33,275 bases of DNA from NCBI GenBank assembly GCA_016933425.1, contig JAFGAY010000168.1, positions 1-33,275 on the forward strand, read 5' to 3'. The notes beneath the pieces were generated by a model, which ran no database searches, had not been told where the DNA came from, and was given only the letters and a program-made list of their open reading frames with translations. The stretch comes from Pirellulales bacterium. GTDB lineage: Bacteria > Planctomycetota > Planctomycetia > Pirellulales > Thermoguttaceae. Position numbers and translations under genes: made by a program. This document shows, one piece after another, positions 368 through 11,447 of this stretch. Positions within the stretch are counted from its first letter, which is position 1. Each line of letters opens with the position of its first letter.

Positions 368-387
368 TTACGGGCGCGGTTCGGTTT
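361..387. repeat. Dispersed repeat, copy 1 (second copy at 15915-15942)
   Basis: The core ccttacgg-g/t-cgcggttcggttt is shared with 15915-15942. Here the repeat overlaps the last codons of the GltD-like gene, so its C-terminal residues (PPQTEPRP) are repeat-encoded. At the other copy it lies between the Nudix gene and the start of the membrane-protein gene. Confidence 0.55.
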
Positions 388-2017
388 GGGGAGGCTTTCC
401 GGCCGCTTCTGTTTCCATGGAGAGGGCGGCGGTGGGGCAGACGGCGACGCACTCGGCGGCCAGGTCGCCCAGCGCCTCGTCGAGCGAACCGTCCATCGGC
501 ACGCCGACGCGCACATCGAACCCTCGGCCGATGAACGTCAGGCCCAGCAGGTCGCGCCGCCTCGCGGCAACCTGGATGCACAAGCCGCAATCGATGCACT
601 TGCCCGAGTCGAAAACCACGCCCGAGGCGCCGCGCAGCAACGTCCGCACGCGCCGCGTGCCCTGAAAGCGCGCCGGTCGGGCGTCGTATTGTTGCGCGTA
701 AATTCGCAGCCGGCAGGCGCCGCGGCCGCCGCAATCGCAATGGAGACACCGGGCCGCCTCGTGCCGGGCCTGCTCGAGAAGCAAGGCAGCCGGCCCGGAT
801 GGGTGCTCCGGCGGGGCGATGCATGCATCTCGGCCGTTTTGCCGGGAGGATGGCACTGGCGAGACGCCGGCGGCGCCTGTTATTTCAATGAGCCTGGCAA
901 CTTGCTCGGCCGGAAGCCGGCCCGAGCGAACGGTAAAAAGCGGCAACGTGCCGGCGGCCGGCGTGCCGGTCAGGAAGGCGTCGATCGAGGCGGCCGCTTC
1001 CTTGCCGTCGGCCACGTCGCGGACGACGGGCGCGGGACCGCGAATGGCGTCGCCGGCGGCGTATACGCTGTCGATGCACGTCCGATAGTTTTTTTTGTCG
1101 ACCTCGATGCCGCGCGGGCCGACGGTCAGCCCCCACGCTTGGCCGAGTTGCCGGCCCTCGGCGCCACATGCCACAAGCACGGCGTCGTGGTCGGCGCGCA
1201 GGCGGTCGAACGACGCCCGATCGCCGACGTTTACGTCGAGCCGCAACACGACGTCGAGACGAACGATTTGGGCGATTTCGGCGTCGATCAGTTCGTCGGG
1301 AAGCGTCGCGGCGTCGAACTCGCGGCGCAATCGTCCGCCGGCCTTGGATTGCCGGTCGATGAGCGTAACGCGGTGTCCGGCCCGAGCCAGATGGTACGCG
1401 GCCGCGAGACCGCAGGGTCCGGCGCCGACGATGGCGACTCGTTTGCCCGAGTCGGCCCGGCACGACGGCCGATAGGGTTCGTCGGAGGCCAGATCGAGTT
1501 CGGCCATTCGGGCCTTGAGGGCGCAGACGGCGACCGGTCCGTCGGCCGCTGCACGGCGACAGCCTTTTTCGCACGGTTTTCCACAGACGCGACCCAGCAC
1601 GGCCGGCAGGGCAATGTCGTTTTTGATGGTGACAATGGCCTGACGGAATTGGCCGTCGCGAATCTGGCGGAGCATCAGGGGGACGTCCATGTGGGCCGGG
1701 CAGGCCAACTGGCAAGGCGCCAGACAATCGCCCTGGTGGTCGCTCAGCAGCAGCTCCAGAGCCGTCCGCCGGGCATGGTGGACCTCGGGCGTCTCGCTCT
1801 CGACCTCCATGCCGTCCATCGCGACCGTGGCGCAGGCCGGAACGAGACGCTGCCGGCCGCGCACTTTTACGACGCACACCAGGCACGACGCCGAAGGCTC
1901 GTAGCCGTCGCGATGACAAAGCGTCGGCACGTCGATGCCCAGCCGCCGGGCAGCGTCGAGAATGGTCGCCCCGGTCGGAACTTCAACACGTCGATTGTCA
2001 ATAGTGATGGTAGGCAT
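368..2017 (-). CDS. GltD-like FAD/iron-sulfur oxidoreductase subunit with NuoG-type [2Fe-2S] N-terminus, lacking an NADPH domain
   Basis: A 549-residue protein from the ATG at 2017; a TTG at 2053 would add 12 residues. Domains in order: a NuoG-type [2Fe-2S] ferredoxin (Cys34, 45, 48, 62); the Cys-rich helical domain found ahead of GltD and NfnB flavoproteins (Cys98, 102, 106, then the RVC-x3-C-x3-C set at 145-153); an FAD-binding Rossmann segment GAGPCG at 198-203; its closing segment YAAGDA at 319-324; then Cys-rich segments at 424-435 and 474-480 with ECVAVCP at 522-528, like the [4Fe-4S] part of NuoG. Only about 33 residues separate VACGA (282-286) from YAAGDA, where GltD carries its NAD(P)H-binding domain, so that domain is absent. 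The gene follows the NuoE-NuoF fusion on the same strand after a repeat-filled 245-bp gap. It probably passes electrons between the NuoF-like flavin and its own FAD/Fe-S centres. The closest known architecture is the StnC/NfnB-like partner of bifurcating enzymes. Substrate unknown. Confidence 0.88.
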   Translation of the reverse strand: MPTITIDNRRVEVPTGATILDAARRLGIDVPTLCHRDGYEPSASCLVCVVKVRGRQRLVPACATVAMDGMEVESETPEVHHARRTALELLLSDHQGDCLAPCQLACPAHMDVPLMLRQIRDGQFRQAIVTIKNDIALPAVLGRVCGKPCEKGCRRAAADGPVAVCALKARMAELDLASDEPYRPSCRADSGKRVAIVGAGPCGLAAAYHLARAGHRVTLIDRQSKAGGRLRREFDAATLPDELIDAEIAQIVRLDVVLRLDVNVGDRASFDRLRADHDAVLVACGAEGRQLGQAWGLTVGPRGIEVDKKNYRTCIDSVYAAGDAIRGPAPVVRDVADGKEAAASIDAFLTGTPAAGTLPLFTVRSGRLPAEQVARLIEITGAAGVSPVPSSRQNGRDACIAPPEHPSGPAALLLEQARHEAARCLHCDCGGRGACRLRIYAQQYDARPARFQGTRRVRTLLRGASGVVFDSGKCIDCGLCIQVAARRRDLLGLTFIGRGFDVRVGVPMDGSLDEALGDLAAECVAVCPTAALSMETEAAGKPPQTEPRP

Positions 2018-2061
2018 GGGAGGAAGGCCGGGAACTTTGGTTTTCAAGCCCAATTATGATA

Positions 2062-2099
2062 ATTTGAGATTTGAGATTTCAGATTTGAGATTTCAGATC
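2062..2099. repeat. AT-rich short tandem repeat
   Basis: Three overlapping units of the type tttgagatttcaga sit directly upstream of the GltD-like gene, in the gap after the NuoE-NuoF fusion. The composition contrasts sharply with the GC-rich genes. It is a simple-sequence intergenic repeat; a promoter role cannot be judged from sequence. Confidence 0.7.
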
Positions 2100-2108
2100 T
2101 GGGAACAC

Positions 2109-4668: not shown

Positions 4669-4691
4669 GGGGGTCTATTGCGAGGTTGCTT

Positions 4692-4740
4692 CACCACGAA
4701 AGATACGAAGGGAATTCGACTTCTTTTTCGTGTTTTACGT
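4692..4740. repeat. caccacgaaagacacgaa-type repeat
   Basis: A degenerate copy of a 9-bp-period repeat (acgaaagac) begins at 4692, with an inverted remnant (ttttcgtgttttacg) near 4725-4739. It fills the gap between the propeller gene and the NuoE-NuoF fusion. The same family occurs at 6611-6720, 8605-8645, 14303-14400, 33153-33182 and 33229-33275. Confidence 0.7.
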
Positions 4741-4744
4741 GATG

Positions 4745-6604
4745 TTATTCGTTTTTGGTAATGTCTTCGCTGCCGCCGATGGCCATGAGGTGTTTTTTGG
4801 TTCGGATGTAGATTCGGCCGTTTTGCACCGCGGGACTGGTGACGCACGATTCGCCAAGGTCGTTTTCGGCGATGATTTTGCACTCGTCGCGCGAGGGTTC
4901 GAGCACGAAGCTCTTTCCGTTTTTGGCGAAGACGTAGGCGAGGCGTCCGACGGCGGTGGGCGACGAGGTGATTTGGGTCTCGAAATCATGGTCCCAGAGC
5001 ATTTCGCCCGACAGGGCGTCGTAGCAAGTCAACACGCCCGAGCTGGTGGTCAACAAAAGCAGCCCTCCGGACGCCAGGGGGCTCACGGTGTCGGGCAACC
5101 CGTCCTCGCCGCGCCACGCGATATGGGTTTCGGTCACGTTGCCGGCGCCGCCCAGGCGAATGGCCAGCCATTCGCCGTATTCGTTGCCGACCTGGACCAG
5201 ACCGCCGGCCGCGACGGGCGTCACGCCGTGGTCGCCCATGATTCCCTCGGCCCGCCAAAGTTCATGACCGTCGGCCGGATCGTAGGCAATCACCCAGGGA
5301 TCGGCGGCCGTGACAAGCGCCGGGCGGTCGTCGTGCACAACGACAATCGGCGAAGCCCACGAACCGGTCACGGGCCGCGGAACTTGCCAGACCGTTTTTC
5401 CGGTGGCCGCGTCCAGGGCAATCATCTTGGACAGTTTGTCATCGGCCGTTCCCTCGTCCCACTGGATCAACAGGCGATCTCGGTAAATCGCCAGCGAGGC
5501 GGCGTAGCCATACATATTTTCCTCGGGCACGCCGAGGCCGCGCGACCAGACGATCTGGCCGGCCAAATCGACCGCCACGACGTCGCCGTTGGCGAAAATG
5601 GCATAGGCGCGGCGGCCGTCGGTGGTCATCGTCGGCGCGGCGAAACCGGTGGCCGCCTCGACCTTGGGCACGGCCGAGCGGCTTGGGGGCGTCGAGGGAA
5701 CTTCGCGGGTCCAGAGCAATCGGCCCGAGCCGGCGTCGAAACAATAGACCTCGCGCCGCTGTCGGTCGGCGCCGGAAAGGAAAATGCGGTCACCCCAGAC
5801 GATCGGCGAGTTGTTGCCGGGCAGCGGGACGGGCGTTTTCCATGCGATATTCTTGCCTGAGACCGCGTCCCAGGTCGTTGGAAGATTCTCGTAAGCGGCG
5901 ATCCCGTCGGCCCGAGGTCCGCGAAAACGGGGCCAGTTCCTGGCGATTTCCTCGTTGGTCGGGAAGTCGGGTTCGGGCGCCGGGGCGACGCCGGTGGTTT
6001 GCCGCGCGCCGTCGCCGGCTCGTGCGGCAATGGCGCGCTGTTGGTCGGGCGCGGTCGATTGGTCGGCAAGTTGATCGACGGCCAATGGCAGGTTCGTCCC
6101 GACGCCGAACGCGGCGAACGCGGCGATCACGCCAAATGCGATTGCCGCCACGCTTACGGCTATCCGCGAGACGCCGGCGGCAGCCAGACGCTGTTGCGTG
6201 CCGGGGGGAGAAACGGCCGGACCGGGATGCGGCATTCGACGGCGGAGCGTTGCCGCCGCGCGCTCGGCAAGAACTAGAACGACGACACCCATCACCAACA
6301 GGTGGGCTCCGACGTGGGCCAACCGCTGACGCTGGAAGAACTCGCGACGGAGGTTCTGATCGAGCACGCGAAGTTTCATTTTAATCGCGTCGCGACGCGC
6401 GACACCGACCGACGGATCGGCCAACTCTTGCTTCAACGCGATAAACTCGGACGAATCGAATGGATTGTCCCATTGCCGGCGGGCGTAGTCGGTCACCAAG
6501 AGTACGCAAACCACGAAGACGAACACCACGGCAACCCAGGCTGTTGCGCTCGCGGCCAGGCAGGCGATGGCGGATGATTCGGGTTGGGGCGTGTTTTGGT
6601 TCAT
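4745..6604 (-). CDS. Membrane-anchored PQQ-like (BamB-like) beta-propeller protein
   Basis: A 619-residue protein. Hydrophobic segments lie near residues 12-37, 97-120 and 145-175, with a charged helical stretch (about 40-95) between the first two. From about residue 220 it has the planctomycete-style entry motif NWPRFRGPRADG and then at least five propeller blades of the type V-x-x-D-x-x-T/S-G-x-x-x-W (for example CFDAGSGRLLW, ALDAATGKTVW, AYDPADGHELW, CYDALSGEMLW). The propeller is probably outside the cytoplasmic membrane. The blade signature is shared by PQQ dehydrogenases and by non-catalytic BamB scaffolds. No cofactor or active-site set is evident, so an enzymatic role is not supported. 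It lies between the membrane polyferredoxin gene and the NuoE-NuoF fusion, both gaps about 75 bp and repeat-derived, suggesting one transcription unit. Confidence 0.88.
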   Translation of the reverse strand: MNQNTPQPESSAIACLAASATAWVAVVFVFVVCVLLVTDYARRQWDNPFDSSEFIALKQELADPSVGVARRDAIKMKLRVLDQNLRREFFQRQRLAHVGAHLLVMGVVVLVLAERAAATLRRRMPHPGPAVSPPGTQQRLAAAGVSRIAVSVAAIAFGVIAAFAAFGVGTNLPLAVDQLADQSTAPDQQRAIAARAGDGARQTTGVAPAPEPDFPTNEEIARNWPRFRGPRADGIAAYENLPTTWDAVSGKNIAWKTPVPLPGNNSPIVWGDRIFLSGADRQRREVYCFDAGSGRLLWTREVPSTPPSRSAVPKVEAATGFAAPTMTTDGRRAYAIFANGDVVAVDLAGQIVWSRGLGVPEENMYGYAASLAIYRDRLLIQWDEGTADDKLSKMIALDAATGKTVWQVPRPVTGSWASPIVVVHDDRPALVTAADPWVIAYDPADGHELWRAEGIMGDHGVTPVAAGGLVQVGNEYGEWLAIRLGGAGNVTETHIAWRGEDGLPDTVSPLASGGLLLLTTSSGVLTCYDALSGEMLWDHDFETQITSSPTAVGRLAYVFAKNGKSFVLEPSRDECKIIAENDLGESCVTSPAVQNGRIYIRTKKHLMAIGGSEDITKNE

Positions 6605-6610
6605 CTTTTT

Positions 6611-6720
6611 TTACCACGAAAGACACGAAAGACACGAAATTTTTTTATTGTCGGTGGGTTGCGATACGGTTTACTTGGCTAACAAGCCGTTTTCGTGTTT
6701 TTCGTGTCTTTCGTGGTCTG
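6611..6720. repeat. Inverted pair of acgaaagac-type repeats overlapping the 3' end of the NapH-like gene
   Basis: Left half at 6611-6640 (ttaccacgaaagacacgaa) and its inverted match at about 6691-6720 (ttcgtgtctttcgtggt) flank an AT-rich core. The preceding gene's stop codon lies inside the element (6679-6681), so its last dozen residues (TTKDTKNTKTAC) are repeat-encoded. Confidence 0.8.
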
Positions 6721-7992
6721 TAAACGGTGGACTTGATCTTGGGGGCAGTACCAGAAACAACGGCCGCAGGAAACGCAGGCGGCCGGATTGGGTTCGTAGT
6801 CGGTTTGTCTGGGGTATCGGGCCAGCATGATGAACTTCATTCCGACGACCAGTCCAACCCAAGCGCCAAAGCCCATGCCGGCCCAGGCAAGTTTGACGCG
6901 CTGGCTTTGGGCCGCTCGGTAAAGTTCCTCGGGCGGGCGTTGGGTATTGCGGAAGGCGTCGCTGGCGTCGGTGGTGACGTGGGTCAGCCCGTGGTCTTCG
7001 GCCCAAACCTGCTCGGCCAGTTCGACCGCCGGATCGAGACGCGACAAGGGAACGGCCAAATGGCTTCCCAGGACTGCGCCGGCGGCGATCAGGACGGGCA
7101 GCAGGACGAGGAAAAAGACGAACCAGCCTCGCACGGCCGGCCTCGCGGCCGGCGACAGGGCAGAGGTCGGAGGTTCGATCGCGCCGTAGGGACACACGTC
7201 CTCGCACAGCCGGCACCCAATGCACTGGTCGGGCGTGATGCGGACGCGCCATTTCGACAATCGCGAAAGCCAACCGAGCACAACCCCATAGGGACACAAA
7301 AACCGGCAATAGGGCCGGCCCACGAAAACCCCGATCGCCAGCACGCAGCCGCCGAAAATCAGCATGGCCGACGTCGCGCCGAGGCGAAAAAACCCGACGA
7401 ACGGATCGTAACGGCATATGAGAAACGCGGTGCCCACGGCCGCCAACGCCACGCCCAAACCCAAATAAACGTGGGGCAACAATCCCAGGGCGTGTTCGAG
7501 CCAACGGGGAACGCGGATGGGTCGAACCGCGACGAGTTCCTGGGCAGCGCCCAGCGGACACACGGCCGCGCAGAACGTCCGTCCGAAGAAGAGCGTGAAC
7601 ACCAACGGCAGGACGAAAAACGCAACGACGACCCAGGGAACCGTGTAATTCGCGTTGCCGGCGGCCAGGGCCACGTTCTGAATCGCGCCGATCGAACACA
7701 CGCACCCGTGTCGGACAAAACCAAACCACGCCAGAGCCGCGATTGACAGCACGAACAACCCGCGGCGCGAACGCCGGGCCAGGGCCAAATAGCTGGCCAG
7801 AGCCAGACCACCGGCCAGCAGGGCCACGTCGACGTATTGTATGAACGCCGGACGCGCGGGAGCAAATTGGGTGGTGGGCAGCGCGTGGTCGGTGAACTCG
7901 GGTGGGGGAAACCGCTCGACCGCCAGCGCCGCGTTCGAGGCGGCGGCCAGCAGCACGACCGCAAACAAAACAAACCGGATCGGCCGCATCAT
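6679..7992 (-). CDS. NapH/NosR-like membrane polyferredoxin
   Basis: A 437-residue protein starting at the ATG at 7992, which overlaps the previous gene's TGA in an ATGA junction and so implies translational coupling. It has an N-terminal hydrophobic segment (residues 4-24) and about five further membrane helices. Two Cys-x3-Cys-Pro motifs, GRTFCAAVCPLG (141-146) and GRPYCRFLCPYG (229-234), are the hallmark of the NapH/NosR/CcoG family. A [4Fe-4S] site CIGCRLCEDVCP (257-268) and a second CVSCGRCFWYCP (406-417) follow. A CVC pair at 97-99 is an extra feature. NosR's N-terminal FMN domain is missing. By family analogy it exchanges electrons between the quinone pool and Fe-S proteins together with the NapG-like protein encoded just upstream. 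The C-terminal tail is repeat-derived. Confidence 0.88.
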   Translation of the reverse strand: MMRPIRFVLFAVVLLAAASNAALAVERFPPPEFTDHALPTTQFAPARPAFIQYVDVALLAGGLALASYLALARRSRRGLFVLSIAALAWFGFVRHGCVCSIGAIQNVALAAGNANYTVPWVVVAFFVLPLVFTLFFGRTFCAAVCPLGAAQELVAVRPIRVPRWLEHALGLLPHVYLGLGVALAAVGTAFLICRYDPFVGFFRLGATSAMLIFGGCVLAIGVFVGRPYCRFLCPYGVVLGWLSRLSKWRVRITPDQCIGCRLCEDVCPYGAIEPPTSALSPAARPAVRGWFVFFLVLLPVLIAAGAVLGSHLAVPLSRLDPAVELAEQVWAEDHGLTHVTTDASDAFRNTQRPPEELYRAAQSQRVKLAWAGMGFGAWVGLVVGMKFIMLARYPRQTDYEPNPAACVSCGRCFWYCPQDQVHRLQTTKDTKNTKTAC

Positions 7993-8564
7993 GATTCGGG
8001 GTCCCCGTCCTTGGGCAAATAGGGCGTTTCGGCCGTGACCCGACGAACGGCTTCCGACGGGCAGGCCACGGCGATAGCGCACTCGTTGCAGTGCATGCAG
8101 CGGTCCTGGTCTATCTGAAGGTAGAGCGAACCGTTGCCGAAAGCGATGCAGCCCTTGACGCACTTGGCGCAGCCGATGCATTTTGGTTCGTCGATCGTGT
8201 ATTCGTAGTAAGGATCCTCGACGAACGTGCGCACAATGGCGCCGGTTGGGCAAAGCACGTTCTCGGCGCCGGTGGTCAATTCGGCGGCTTCCGGCTCGAA
8301 ATAGCCGGTGCACAAGTTGCAATAGCCGCACATCCGAAAAGCATGTTTGCAGACGGCGGCCGACTTATCCAGCACGCAATGGGTTGCGCAGTTGCCGCAG
8401 GCGACGCACTTGTTGGGATCGATTTGCCAAAGGTTGTTGATTGGTTCGCCGCCGCGGCGCATGGTCAGCAAACCGGCCGCGCCGAACAGCCCGGCGGCGC
8501 CAGCGACGCGCAAACCATCGGCAACGAATTTTCGACGATTGATGGTAGGCGATTTTTCAGCCAT
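7989..8564 (-). CDS. Tat-exported NapG-like ferredoxin with multiple [4Fe-4S] clusters
   Basis: A 191-residue protein. Residues 8-35 form a Tat signal: INRRKFVADG followed by an Ala/Gly/Leu-rich hydrophobic stretch. Iron-sulfur ligands: Cys53/56/59/63; Cys72/79/82/85 with CPTGA at 105; Cys129/132/135/139; and Cys156/159/162 with Cys168-Pro, the last spaced two residues wider than the usual Cys-x3-Cys-Pro. The sequence resembles NapG/NrfC-type electron carriers, expected to act on the outer face of the membrane or to stay membrane-bound through the signal helix. The stop overlaps the start of the NapH-like gene (ATGA), as in napGH operons. A weak AAGGAAAG element precedes the ATG. No napA/napB-type reductase is nearby. 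Confidence 0.9.
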   Translation of the reverse strand: MAEKSPTINRRKFVADGLRVAGAAGLFGAAGLLTMRRGGEPINNLWQIDPNKCVACGNCATHCVLDKSAAVCKHAFRMCGYCNLCTGYFEPEAAELTTGAENVLCPTGAIVRTFVEDPYYEYTIDEPKCIGCAKCVKGCIAFGNGSLYLQIDQDRCMHCNECAIAVACPSEAVRRVTAETPYLPKDGDPES

Positions 8565-8597: not shown

Positions 8598-9692
8598 CTA
8601 CGGATTTTTCACGTCTTTCGTGTCTTTCGCGTCTTTCGTGTTCTGTTCAACAAACACCCGAACGGCCTTGGCGTCCGGATCCAGGACCAGGATGCGGTCT
8701 TGGCTGTCGACGGCCAGGTCGACGGCCAGGAGTTTATGTTGTTCGCGGGTTTCCACCTCGCGGCCCGGCGTGGCGCCGAGTTGCTCGGGCGTGGCCACGA
8801 CCGACTCAAAGCGGCCCTCGGGCGAGTAAACCTTGACGCGAGGGATGCCTTTTTCGGCCGTGACAACCCGATTGTCGGCCAACAGGGCGATGGCCACGGG
8901 ATTGCAGCATCCGCAAAACGCTTCAACGTCCATTCCGGCGGAACCCCAATCCAACGGTGTTTCGTGGTGGCCATCGGGCGTGAAAAACTCGATCCGGTGG
9001 CGGCCCGGATTCACGACGCGGACCAGTCCATCCGAGCCGACGGCGACATCGAAATAGGGGCTGGGAATGACCGGCGGGGGGACGTGGTTTCGAGGATCGC
9101 CCTGGGCGAGCTTGCCTATTATTTTACCCGATCGGTCGTAACGAAGCACGCATTTGTTCCCGGCGTCGGCGACGAAAACGTCGCCATTGTCGCCGAGAGC
9201 CACCGACGTGAAAACGTCGCGCCGCGCGGACGATTCCCACTGGGCGGTCGTTTCACCCCGGTTATTGAAAACCAAAAGATAGTTTTGGAACGCCACAAAA
9301 GAATTGCCTTGGGCGTCGACAGCCAGCGCGCGCGGCGCGTCGGTCAGGTCCATCCGCCGCAGGCGTTTTCCCTGGGCGTCAAAAACAAGGATGGTCCGAT
9401 CACCCGCCACGTGGATCGCATCGTCGGGTCCCACGGCAATCGCGCGGAGGTCATACAGGCGGACGGGCACCACGGCGTCCTGGCGGTAGCGCACCAGCGC
9501 GGGATCGATTTTCATGTAGGGATCGAGGTTGTAGTCGAAACGGCGAGGCAAGCCGCCGCGTCGAGGCGAAGGGTCGCCGAGAAACCACAAGGCGCCAATC
9601 CCTACGACAACCAGCGCCGCCAAAAGCAGCATCATCCAGAAATTGGGCTTCCGCACGGCCTCATCCGAATCGGTAGGTGGTTGGAGCTTCAT
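8598..9692 (-). CDS. Membrane-anchored NHL-repeat beta-propeller protein
   Basis: 364 residues from the ATG at 9692. An ATG at 9743 would add 17 residues; neither has a clear ribosome binding site, and the shorter form puts a compact cytoplasmic tail before the single membrane helix (about residues 19-37). The rest is an extracytoplasmic propeller with NHL-type strands (AIAVGPDDAIHVAG, ALAVDAQGNSFVA, SVALGDNGDVFVADAGN, DLAVDSQDRILVLD). A FCGCCNP cluster in an otherwise Cys-poor protein is striking. The last residues (NTKDAKDTKDVKNP) are encoded by the acgaaagac repeat. It precedes the Tat ferredoxin by 33 bp and is probably co-transcribed. NHL propellers usually mediate protein contacts; the ligand here is unknown. 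Confidence 0.83.
   Translation of the reverse strand: MKLQPPTDSDEAVRKPNFWMMLLLAALVVVGIGALWFLGDPSPRRGGLPRRFDYNLDPYMKIDPALVRYRQDAVVPVRLYDLRAIAVGPDDAIHVAGDRTILVFDAQGKRLRRMDLTDAPRALAVDAQGNSFVAFQNYLLVFNNRGETTAQWESSARRDVFTSVALGDNGDVFVADAGNKCVLRYDRSGKIIGKLAQGDPRNHVPPPVIPSPYFDVAVGSDGLVRVVNPGRHRIEFFTPDGHHETPLDWGSAGMDVEAFCGCCNPVAIALLADNRVVTAEKGIPRVKVYSPEGRFESVVATPEQLGATPGREVETREQHKLLAVDLAVDSQDRILVLDPDAKAVRVFVEQNTKDAKDTKDVKNP
8605..8645. repeat. acgaaagac-type repeat inside the 3' end of the NHL gene
   Basis: Four 9-bp units (ctttcgtgt-like on the plus strand) lie within the coding region. Because the period is three codons, the repeat stays open and reads as a TKD tripeptide repeat in the gene's frame. 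Confidence 0.8.
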
Positions 9693-10023: not shown

Positions 10024-10042
10024 GGTCATGACCCGGCCTACG
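10024..10042. repeat. ggtcatgacccggcctac repeat touching the propeller gene's stop
   Basis: Shares ggtcatgacccggc with the complete palindrome at 27109-27130. It overlaps the last bases of the PQQ-like propeller gene. Confidence 0.6.
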
Positions 10043-11447
10043 GGGATTCTGTTATTTCGAGACAAACCATTTGGGTCAGGTCGCGGACCAGCAGTCGTCC
10101 GCCGGCCAGCGCCATGGGCGCCCAGGCTTCATGGCCTTCGAGGACCCGTGCCTGGGCAACGGGCCGGAAGGCGGCGGGCGTTGCCTCGACGAGGGTAAGC
10201 ACGCCGGAGTCGTCCAACACGAGCAGTAATCCGTCGGCCATCATGTAGGGGCCCTTGCCGTCGCCGAAACGATGGTCGGTCCCACTCGCCCAGACCTCGC
10301 GTCCCTCCTGGTCGAGGCAAACAAGCTGGCTGTCGCGCTCGCGGACGCCGTACAGGTAGCCGTCGTAAAAGACGGGCGTGTGCTGAGTCGAGCCAAATTG
10401 TTTGGGCGTCAGTCGAAAGACCTCGCGAGCCTCGAATTTTCCCTCGGCTTCGACCAGTTGGAGCATGACCGCGCCCGAATTGTAGCCGCCGCAGCAAAAA
10501 ATGCGGCCCTCGGGCAGGATAACGGGCGAAGGGCACGTGGCGATGCCAATTTTCCACGCGGTCGTATCCCAAAGGAGCGCGCCGTCGTCGGCCGCGACGC
10601 CCACGACGCCTCCCTTGCCGAAATAAACGTACATTTTTCGACCGGCAAACTCCATGGGCATGATCGAGGCATGAGTCATTGCCCAACCGCGCGGATTGGG
10701 GCATTGCCAAACGAGCTGGCCCGAGCGGCAATCCAGCGCGATCATCAGCGCATCGCCGCCGGGCGCGAAGACGGCCCGACCGGCGTCGATCAGTGGGCAC
10801 TGTCCGGCATACCACTGGGGAACTGTGGCGCCGAACTCGGCGGCAAGGTCCTTGAGCCAGTAGGGCTGGCCCGATCGGGCGTCGACACACAAGACATGGC
10901 ACTTGGGGCCGAGGGTGACGGCGTATTGATCGTTCACGGCGGGCACGGTGCGCGACATGCCGTGGAATCGTTTGACGTCGACCGGATAGGAGCACTGCCA
11001 GATTTCTTGTCCATCGGCCAGCGAGAGGCATCGGAGCACGTCGTTTCGGCGCAGTGGATCGTAATCGAGCACGTAGACCCGACCGTCGCGGACGGCCGCG
11101 CCGGCGTAGCCTTCACCCAGTTCGACCGACCAAAGCCGGCGTGGGCCGCCGGCCGGCCACCGCCGGGCCAGGGACACGCTGTCGTGGGCAATGGCGTCGA
11201 AATAGGGTCCCCGGAATCGCGACCAATCGCCGGCCAGGTTGGCCGGTTGGCCCTGGCCCGAAGCGAGTGTTGGCACTAGCGGCCGGCGCCGGACGGCCGA
11301 GGCCGCTACCGCCGGTCGGTCTCGTCCGGGAATTCGAGCCTCGGGTTTATTCGCGTCGCCGGTTGCCCGCCATGCAAGAAGTCCCGCCAATGCCAACAGA
11401 AAAACGAGGCCGGGAACGAGCAGCGGCGCGAAATGCGTTGGTTTCAT
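10038..11447 (-). CDS. Signal-anchored PQQ-like (BamB-like) beta-propeller protein
   Basis: 469 residues from the ATG at 11447. A hydrophobic anchor or signal lies at residues 7-28 (LLVPGLVFLLALAGLL), then a low-complexity linker, then WSRFRGPYFDA and successive propeller blades (LSLADGQEIW, CVDARSGQPYWL, ALDCRSGQLVW, GVAADDGALLW, CLDQEGREVW). It resembles the propeller at 4745-6604 but has one N-terminal helix instead of three and more cysteines (for example FCCGGY). No catalytic set for a quinoprotein dehydrogenase is recognised. The gene points the same way as the redox genes downstream, but 345 bp of repeats separate them, so membership of the same transcript is uncertain. Its ATG overlaps the TGA of a possible 48-codon ORF. 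Confidence 0.87.
   Translation of the reverse strand: MKPTHFAPLLVPGLVFLLALAGLLAWRATGDANKPEARIPGRDRPAVAASAVRRRPLVPTLASGQGQPANLAGDWSRFRGPYFDAIAHDSVSLARRWPAGGPRRLWSVELGEGYAGAAVRDGRVYVLDYDPLRRNDVLRCLSLADGQEIWQCSYPVDVKRFHGMSRTVPAVNDQYAVTLGPKCHVLCVDARSGQPYWLKDLAAEFGATVPQWYAGQCPLIDAGRAVFAPGGDALMIALDCRSGQLVWQCPNPRGWAMTHASIMPMEFAGRKMYVYFGKGGVVGVAADDGALLWDTTAWKIGIATCPSPVILPEGRIFCCGGYNSGAVMLQLVEAEGKFEAREVFRLTPKQFGSTQHTPVFYDGYLYGVRERDSQLVCLDQEGREVWASGTDHRFGDGKGPYMMADGLLLVLDDSGVLTLVEATPAAFRPVAQARVLEGHEAWAPMALAGGRLLVRDLTQMVCLEITESP

What the first reader, a model, noticed from the sequence alone, without database searches (positions are those of the whole stretch)
368..2017. GltD-like subunit that has lost its NADPH-binding domain
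Between VACGA (282-286) and YAAGDA (319-324) there are only about 33 residues, and no GGGN-x-A-x-D motif is present. GltD and NfnB carry a whole Rossmann domain at that point. The FAD site and all flanking Fe-S sites look intact, and the reading frame is continuous, so this appears to be a functional design. An FAD bound here would exchange electrons only through Fe-S clusters or an unknown substrate.
Basis: partly seen in the sequence, partly recalled or inferred. Interest (0 to 1): 0.6.

Follow-up and report, generated by a model that had tools for sequence, protein, structure and literature searches.

The report
Electron-splitting subunit without its NADPH domain
In many Planctomycetota, one subunit of a known NADH/ferredoxin electron-bifurcating enzyme has permanently lost its NADPH-binding half (and in a few relatives the whole flavin domain), and the enzyme is encoded beside a membrane Fe-S module instead, which suggests it now passes electrons across the membrane.

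Summary
The gene is on the minus strand (window 368-2017). Residues 287-318 (32 aa) stand where relatives have a ~148-aa longer NADPH Rossmann domain; there is no GGGNxAxD motif. AlphaFold2 gives a confident fold (pLDDT 92).

It is not a stray GltD/NfnB. It is the BfuA subunit (StnC/NfnA of Nfn-type transhydrogenases; VIA Z 38-40), encoded next to a fused NuoE-NuoF that carries every marker checked of an electron-bifurcating BfuBC core.

The short form is a clade: 39 of 61 genomes of the family have a homologue and more occur in other families of the phylum. Full-length homologues branch outside it (99/98 support).

The genes lie in a conserved cluster: PQQ propeller, NHL propeller, Tat-type NapG, NapH, membrane PQQ propeller, NuoEF, BfuA. 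The nearest full-length homologues already have NapH or NapGH. Two rarer forms keep the cluster but lack the whole FAD domain, or the whole GltD module, with the remaining Fe-S ligands intact. The FAD domain of short forms evolves faster than the rest.

Most likely this is an Fe-S wire linking NADH/ferredoxin bifurcation to a NapGH transmembrane module, with the FAD becoming optional. Direction, outer substrate and FAD occupancy are unknown. New variant of the Bfu family.

The parts
368..2017 (-). BfuA/StnC-like subunit (549 aa): [2Fe-2S] + GltD-type Fe-S and FAD module without NADPH domain + C-terminal Fe-S
1832..1918 (-). [2Fe-2S] ligands C34, C45, C48, C62 (invariant in 49)
   Evidence: Fer2_4
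1559..1738 (-). H94 and GltD-type Fer4_20 ligands C98, C102, C106, C145, C149, C153 (invariant)
1409..1426 (-). FAD-binding GAGPCG (198-203)
   Evidence: the three Gly 49/49
1064..1159 (-). Junction (residues 287-318) where relatives carry the NADPH Rossmann domain (about 148 residues more)
1046..1063 (-). Second FAD motif YAAGDA (319-324); Asp kept here, in 4/49 overall
713..748 (-). CLHCDC...C Fe-S ligands C424, C427, C429, C435 (invariant)
437..598 (-). C-terminal single [4Fe-4S] site C474, C477, C480 and C527
2263..4668 (-). Fused NuoE-NuoF with extra Trx-like [2Fe-2S], B1 and B2-type ligands and two C-terminal [4Fe-4S]: BfuC-BfuB core
4745..6604 (-). PQQa: three predicted TM segments plus PQQ-type beta-propeller, predicted extracytoplasmic
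6679..7992 (-). NapH-like polytopic Fe-S membrane protein with an extra C-terminal CxxCxxCxxxCP ferredoxin motif
7989..8564 (-). NapG-like protein, 16 invariant Cys, conserved RR (Tat-like) leader
8598..9692 (-). NHL beta-propeller with N-terminal anchor; invariant GCCNP and EK
10038..11447 (-). PQQb: N-terminally anchored PQQ-type propeller with conserved H222, C277, H319, C522 (ORF numbering from 11627)

Best explanation
The protein is the A subunit of a Bfu-type (NADH/ferredoxin) electron-bifurcating complex that descends from Nfn-Bfu/Stn transhydrogenases. Its NADPH-binding domain was lost once, after the enzyme had become linked to a NapGH-type membrane module. It now serves mainly as an iron-sulfur wire. 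Electrons pass between the fused BfuCB subunit (NADH at FMN, ferredoxin at its C-terminal clusters) and NapH (cytoplasmic ferredoxin motifs, membrane), then NapG and membrane-anchored beta-propellers outside. The FAD probably still binds in most members but is no longer the catalytic terminus and is dispensable in some lineages. SHOWN by sequence or model: homology, domain loss, clade, cluster conservation, cofactor-ligand conservation, FAD-less variants. INFERRED: one physical complex, NapH docking on BfuA, direction of flow, outer substrate.
For: Nearest solved structures are NfnABC/StnABC A subunits (VIA Z 40.0, 38.4, 38.1 over 522-525 residues; phmmer E 1e-83 to 1e-94). Next-door NuoEF matches BfuB of the same complexes best (E 3e-220) and keeps Cys/His at the spacing published for the bifurcation-specific B2 cluster (C637, C675, H724, C729, C734; PMC9304861). 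Seven-gene cluster kept in about 14 coded families. NapG and this gene co-occur in 36 of 42 positive family genomes, sometimes on separate contigs. BfuB tree: full-length forms on one side of a 99/98 branch, short plus FAD-less on the other; nearest full-length L116 has PQQb-NHL-NapG-NapH, and L071/L115 has a NapH next to NuoF. L134: whole FAD domain gone, all mapped ligands invariant, folds confidently. L132, L138 and a close relative of L132 in G498 (69% identity): GltD module absent from the same cluster, or in G498 from the fused protein. FAD domain of short forms evolves faster relative to the rest than in full-length forms (p = 0.005, non-independent pairs). No NADPH-domain gene among ORFs at the short loci fetched.
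Against: No biochemistry or expression data. Gene neighbourhood does not prove a complex. GxGxxG and acidic residue 221 stay nearly invariant, so a cofactor role for FAD may persist in most members, including this one. FAD-less forms sit on long branches, so their derivation from the short form is likely, not certain.
Confidence: 0.6

Rival explanations
1. The FAD is a working relay or second bifurcation site: NapH (or another Fe-S protein) docks where the NADPH domain used to be and exchanges electrons directly with the FAD, as in HdrA, whose FAD exchanges electrons only with Fe-S clusters.
For: FAD motifs conserved (GxGxxG 49/49, acidic 221 48/49, G285 49/49); spacing tightly kept; window protein retains D323; HdrA precedent for a bifurcating FAD fed and drained by Fe-S domains (PMC9012536).
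Against: FAD domain deleted in L134, whole GltD module absent in L132/L138, with the rest of the cluster kept; D323 absent in 45/49; relaxed FAD-domain rates; StnC FAD reported as non-bifurcating (PMC10482914).
Confidence: 0.25
2. The open FAD site binds a new small substrate, making this a new flavoenzyme coupled to bifurcation.
For: Loss of the domain that covers the FAD would expose it (inference); the site is conserved.
Against: No other domain replaces it; second FAD motif is variable in the clade; FAD-less relatives keep the cluster.
Confidence: 0.07
3. NADP(H) is still used, with the nucleotide domain supplied in trans by another protein.
For: Full-length relatives use the standard motif at this site.
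Against: No NADPH-domain ORF at the short loci fetched; junction is short and of fixed length in most members.
Confidence: 0.03
4. Assembly error or decaying pseudogene.
For: Draft MAG contig; the gene lies 368 bp from the contig end.
Against: Same deletion in dozens of independent genomes, including single-contig ones (G024, G187); dN/dS about 0.06-0.25; confident fold.
Confidence: 0.01

Closest known systems
StnC of StnABC (Sporomusa-type Nfn; PDB 8oh5) and Nfn-ABC A subunit (9bov, Caldicellulosiruptor)
   Same: Order of [2Fe-2S], inserted GltD module, C-terminal Fe-S; BfuBC-type partner; VIA Z 38-40 over ~523 residues
   Different: They have the NADPH domain and are far longer (1172-1178 aa; StnC ends in an FdhF-like domain); here both are absent and NapGH/propeller genes are linked
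Thermococcus sibiricus Nfn-Bfu NfnA (9n5u)
   Same: Same layout; also lacks the Cys of the second C-terminal cluster (alignment; A4 in PMC9304861)
   Different: Retains the NADPH domain; reported to catalyse NADPH-dependent Fd reduction that needs NAD+ (PMC9304861)
NfnB/NfnL and GltD
   Same: Fer4_20 + FAD fold, rmsd 1.8 A over 254 residues with 5jfc_L
   Different: No NADPH domain; extra [2Fe-2S] and C-terminal Fe-S; different partner subunits
HdrA
   Same: FAD domain of the thioredoxin-reductase type that exchanges electrons only with Fe-S clusters
   Different: HdrA has inserted and C-terminal ferredoxin domains and HdrBC partners; membership not claimed
Nuo-Bfu and Mbh-Bfu
   Same: Predicted membrane-linked Bfu complexes
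   Different: Use complex I or Mbh membrane arms; here NapGH plus propellers

Membership tests
Bfu (HydABC/StnABC-type bifurcating) family | BfuB with NuoF FMN domain, B1, extra [2Fe-2S] and two C-terminal [4Fe-4S] | tested here: met
Bfu (HydABC/StnABC-type bifurcating) family | B2 cluster ligands including the bifurcation-specific His | tested here: met
   C637/C675/H724/C729/C734; H724 conserved in all 36 aligned; spacing compared with PMC9304861
Bfu (HydABC/StnABC-type bifurcating) family | BfuC [2Fe-2S] subunit | tested here: met
   fused as residues 22-164 of P0003
Bfu (HydABC/StnABC-type bifurcating) family | Coupled NADH/ferredoxin bifurcation activity | not testable with these tools
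   needs purified enzyme
Nfn-Bfu / Stn transhydrogenase | BfuA layout: [2Fe-2S], GltD insert, C-terminal Fe-S | tested here: met
Nfn-Bfu / Stn transhydrogenase | NADP(H)-binding Rossmann domain | tested here: not met
GltD / NfnB | FAD plus NADPH domains, whole-protein curated score | tested here: not met
   below all listed GltD-type NCBIfam cut-offs
HdrA | HdrA N-terminal and inserted ferredoxin domains | tested here: inconclusive
   no HdrA model among the 25 best NCBIfam hits shown and none in the rows; not excluded
NapGH quinol dehydrogenase module | NapH-type polytopic protein with Fer4_5 and ferredoxin motifs plus Tat-type NapG with four 4-Cys sites | tested here: met
   NapH subfamily score below curated cut-off, so NapH-like only

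The most novel reading that the evidence does not exclude
A previously undescribed membrane-bound class of Bfu enzyme ('NapGH-Bfu') in Planctomycetota couples NADH plus ferredoxin to an extracytoplasmic redox partner through NapH, NapG and beta-propellers. It arose from a transhydrogenase by stepwise shedding of the NADPH domain, then the FAD domain, then the GltD Fe-S module.
Probability: 0.5. Interest if true: 0.75.

Novelty: new variant of a known kind. Interest (0 to 1): 0.62.

Why it matters
It is a natural series (full, NADPH-less, FAD-less, GltD-less) in which the third-substrate site of a bifurcating enzyme appears to be replaced while the bifurcating core stays. It predicts an energy-coupled route for electrons across the membrane in Planctomycetota, with an unknown extracytoplasmic partner, and makes testable whether the GltD-type FAD in Bfu enzymes is needed for anything but NADP(H).

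Tried and rejected
Sequencing error or pseudogene: rejected by the clade and selection. NADPH domain supplied by a neighbour: no ORF found at the short loci fetched. Propellers as a clue to substrate: profile hits to PDB are generic (BamB, quinoprotein dehydrogenases, NHL/TRIM), no substrate inferred. Literature searches for a NapGH-linked Bfu complex and the Thermogutta paper gave no description of this cluster. The genome-contig scan found close relatives only in Planctomycetota records, but its peptide patterns are not sensitive. A phage-collection match (52% of the query, 46% identity) in an unannotated short faecal record is probably bacterial DNA. A 13-base repeat guess was wrong; the real repeat has a different sequence.

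Full report
What is there. The gene runs on the minus strand, window 2017 to 368, 549 aa. It carries a [2Fe-2S] domain, a GltD/DPD-type two-cluster domain, an FAD-binding Rossmann half and a C-terminal Fe-S domain. Between VACGA (282-286) and YAAGDA (319-324) only 32 residues remain, where StnC and Nfn-ABC A subunits have about 148 more. No NADPH motif is present. The AlphaFold2 model is confident (pLDDT 91.9, pTM 0.90) and aligns along its whole length to NfnABC/StnABC A subunits (Z 38-40), and to NfnL at 1.8 A over 254 residues.

What family. The protein has the StnC order: a HydA/NuoG-like N-terminus, GltD inserted, then the NuoG-like Fe-S part (StnC layout from PMC10482914). The neighbouring 801-aa protein is a NuoE-NuoF fusion with the extra thioredoxin-like [2Fe-2S] and two C-terminal [4Fe-4S] sites. 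Its C637, C675, H724, C729 and C734 correspond in spacing to the pentacoordinate B2 cluster that the Bfu paper gives as C438, C476, H525, C531 and C536; that paper reports the His in virtually all BfuB and not in non-bifurcating homologues (PMC9304861). H724 is conserved in all 36 homologues aligned. So the pair is BfuA plus BfuCB, with one defining feature of the Nfn-Bfu subgroup, NADP(H) binding, tested and not met.

Is the loss real and ancient? In the family, 39 of 61 genomes have a homologue; in a phylum sample 47 of 392 have a match, short and full-length together. Forty-nine short forms (relatives 35-65% identical to the window protein) lack the motif and mostly keep one fixed spacing. 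Three relatives (L044, L048, L049) carry lineage-specific insertions, without the NADPH motif. Full-length homologues exist elsewhere in the phylum (G148, G307, G404 and others). A careful BfuB tree puts all full-length forms on one side of a branch supported 99/98, and short plus FAD-less forms on the other. In the earlier quick tree L076, which is the same locus as L116, was labelled short by mistake; the careful tree corrects this. The nearest full-length forms already have the membrane module: L116 lies in PQQb-NHL-NapG-NapH-NuoE-NuoF-GltD, and L115 begins inside a NapH gene next to NuoF. One loss, after the NapH association, is the simplest reading.

Neighbourhood. The order PQQb, NHL, NapG, NapH, PQQa, NuoEF, BfuA recurs in about 14 coded families. 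In the family, NapG and BfuA occur together in 36 genomes, singly in 3 and 3, and neither in 19 (Fisher p 6e-10, not corrected for relatedness). At least two of the single cases (G023, G046) still have NuoEF beside NapG, in G023 with the start of BfuA at the contig edge. In G038, G028 and G040 the two parts lie on different contigs but both are kept. NapG has 16 invariant Cys and a conserved RR leader; NapH has an extra C-terminal ferredoxin motif in 96% of sequences. PQQa has three predicted TM segments and the other two propellers one N-terminal anchor each, so they are predicted to lie outside the cytoplasm.

Natural deletion series. L134 (G247) keeps the [2Fe-2S] and all GltD-type Fe-S ligands but has no FAD domain; Pfam finds Fer2_4 and Fer4_20 (plus a weak Nqo3-type ferredoxin match) and no FAD or pyridine-nucleotide domain, the ligands align as invariant, and the model is confident. 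It is known from one genome; four others of its family had no match. L132 (G411, single-contig genome) and L138 (G046) are NuoE-NuoF-BfuA fusions without any GltD module, in the same cluster; a second species of G411's genus (G498) has a 69% identical protein, with one in-frame stop reported. Their BfuA parts match a short-form protein best, and the tree nests them among short forms, though on long branches. In short forms the FAD domain has 1.2-3.4 times the dN of the rest; in full-length pairs the ratio is 0.9-1.0, with one at 1.5 (pairs are not fully independent and several dS values are saturated).

How it most likely works. The core exchanges electrons with NADH and ferredoxin (established for Bfu enzymes, PMC9304861). 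BfuA carries them along its Fe-S chain. With NADPH gone, the conserved neighbour with matching chemistry is NapH/NapG, a module that PMC8238504 describes as modular transmembrane electron transfer. I infer docking of NapH on BfuA and flow to or from extracytoplasmic propeller proteins; direction and substrate are open. The FAD is probably bound in most members (ADP-ribose residues conserved) but is not required by the system, since relatives do without it.

Limits. No structure of the complex, no cofactor modelling, no expression data. The held sample is one genome per species, many of them draft MAGs. Absence of a published description was checked only in the open-access library.

Noticed in passing
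L132:12674-15667 and L138:13044-15995: Triple fusion NuoE-NuoF-BfuA without any GltD module, in the same propeller/NapGH cluster.
   Followed up: yes
L134:4125-5249 (G247:C8): BfuA that keeps the GltD-type Fe-S ligands but has lost the entire FAD domain.
   Followed up: yes
window 8598-9692: NHL propeller with an invariant GCCNP and EK motif, suggesting a metal, Fe-S or thiol site of unknown function.
   Followed up: partly
window 10038-11447: PQQ-type propeller with invariant His/Cys (H222, C277, H319, C522 in ORF numbering); no known match beyond generic propellers.
   Followed up: partly
window 4690-4756, 6610-6717, 8598-8646: Repeats of a 9-base unit (ACGAAAGAC, reading ACCACGAAAGACACGAA) on both strands between the cluster genes; 5 matches where shuffles give none.
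   Followed up: partly
L003 / G000:C159:1-1743: The same genome encodes a separate group A [FeFe]-hydrogenase HydA at a contig edge.
   Followed up: no
window 2050-2100: Short direct repeats (GATTTGAGATTTCA) in the gap between NuoEF and BfuA.
   Followed up: no
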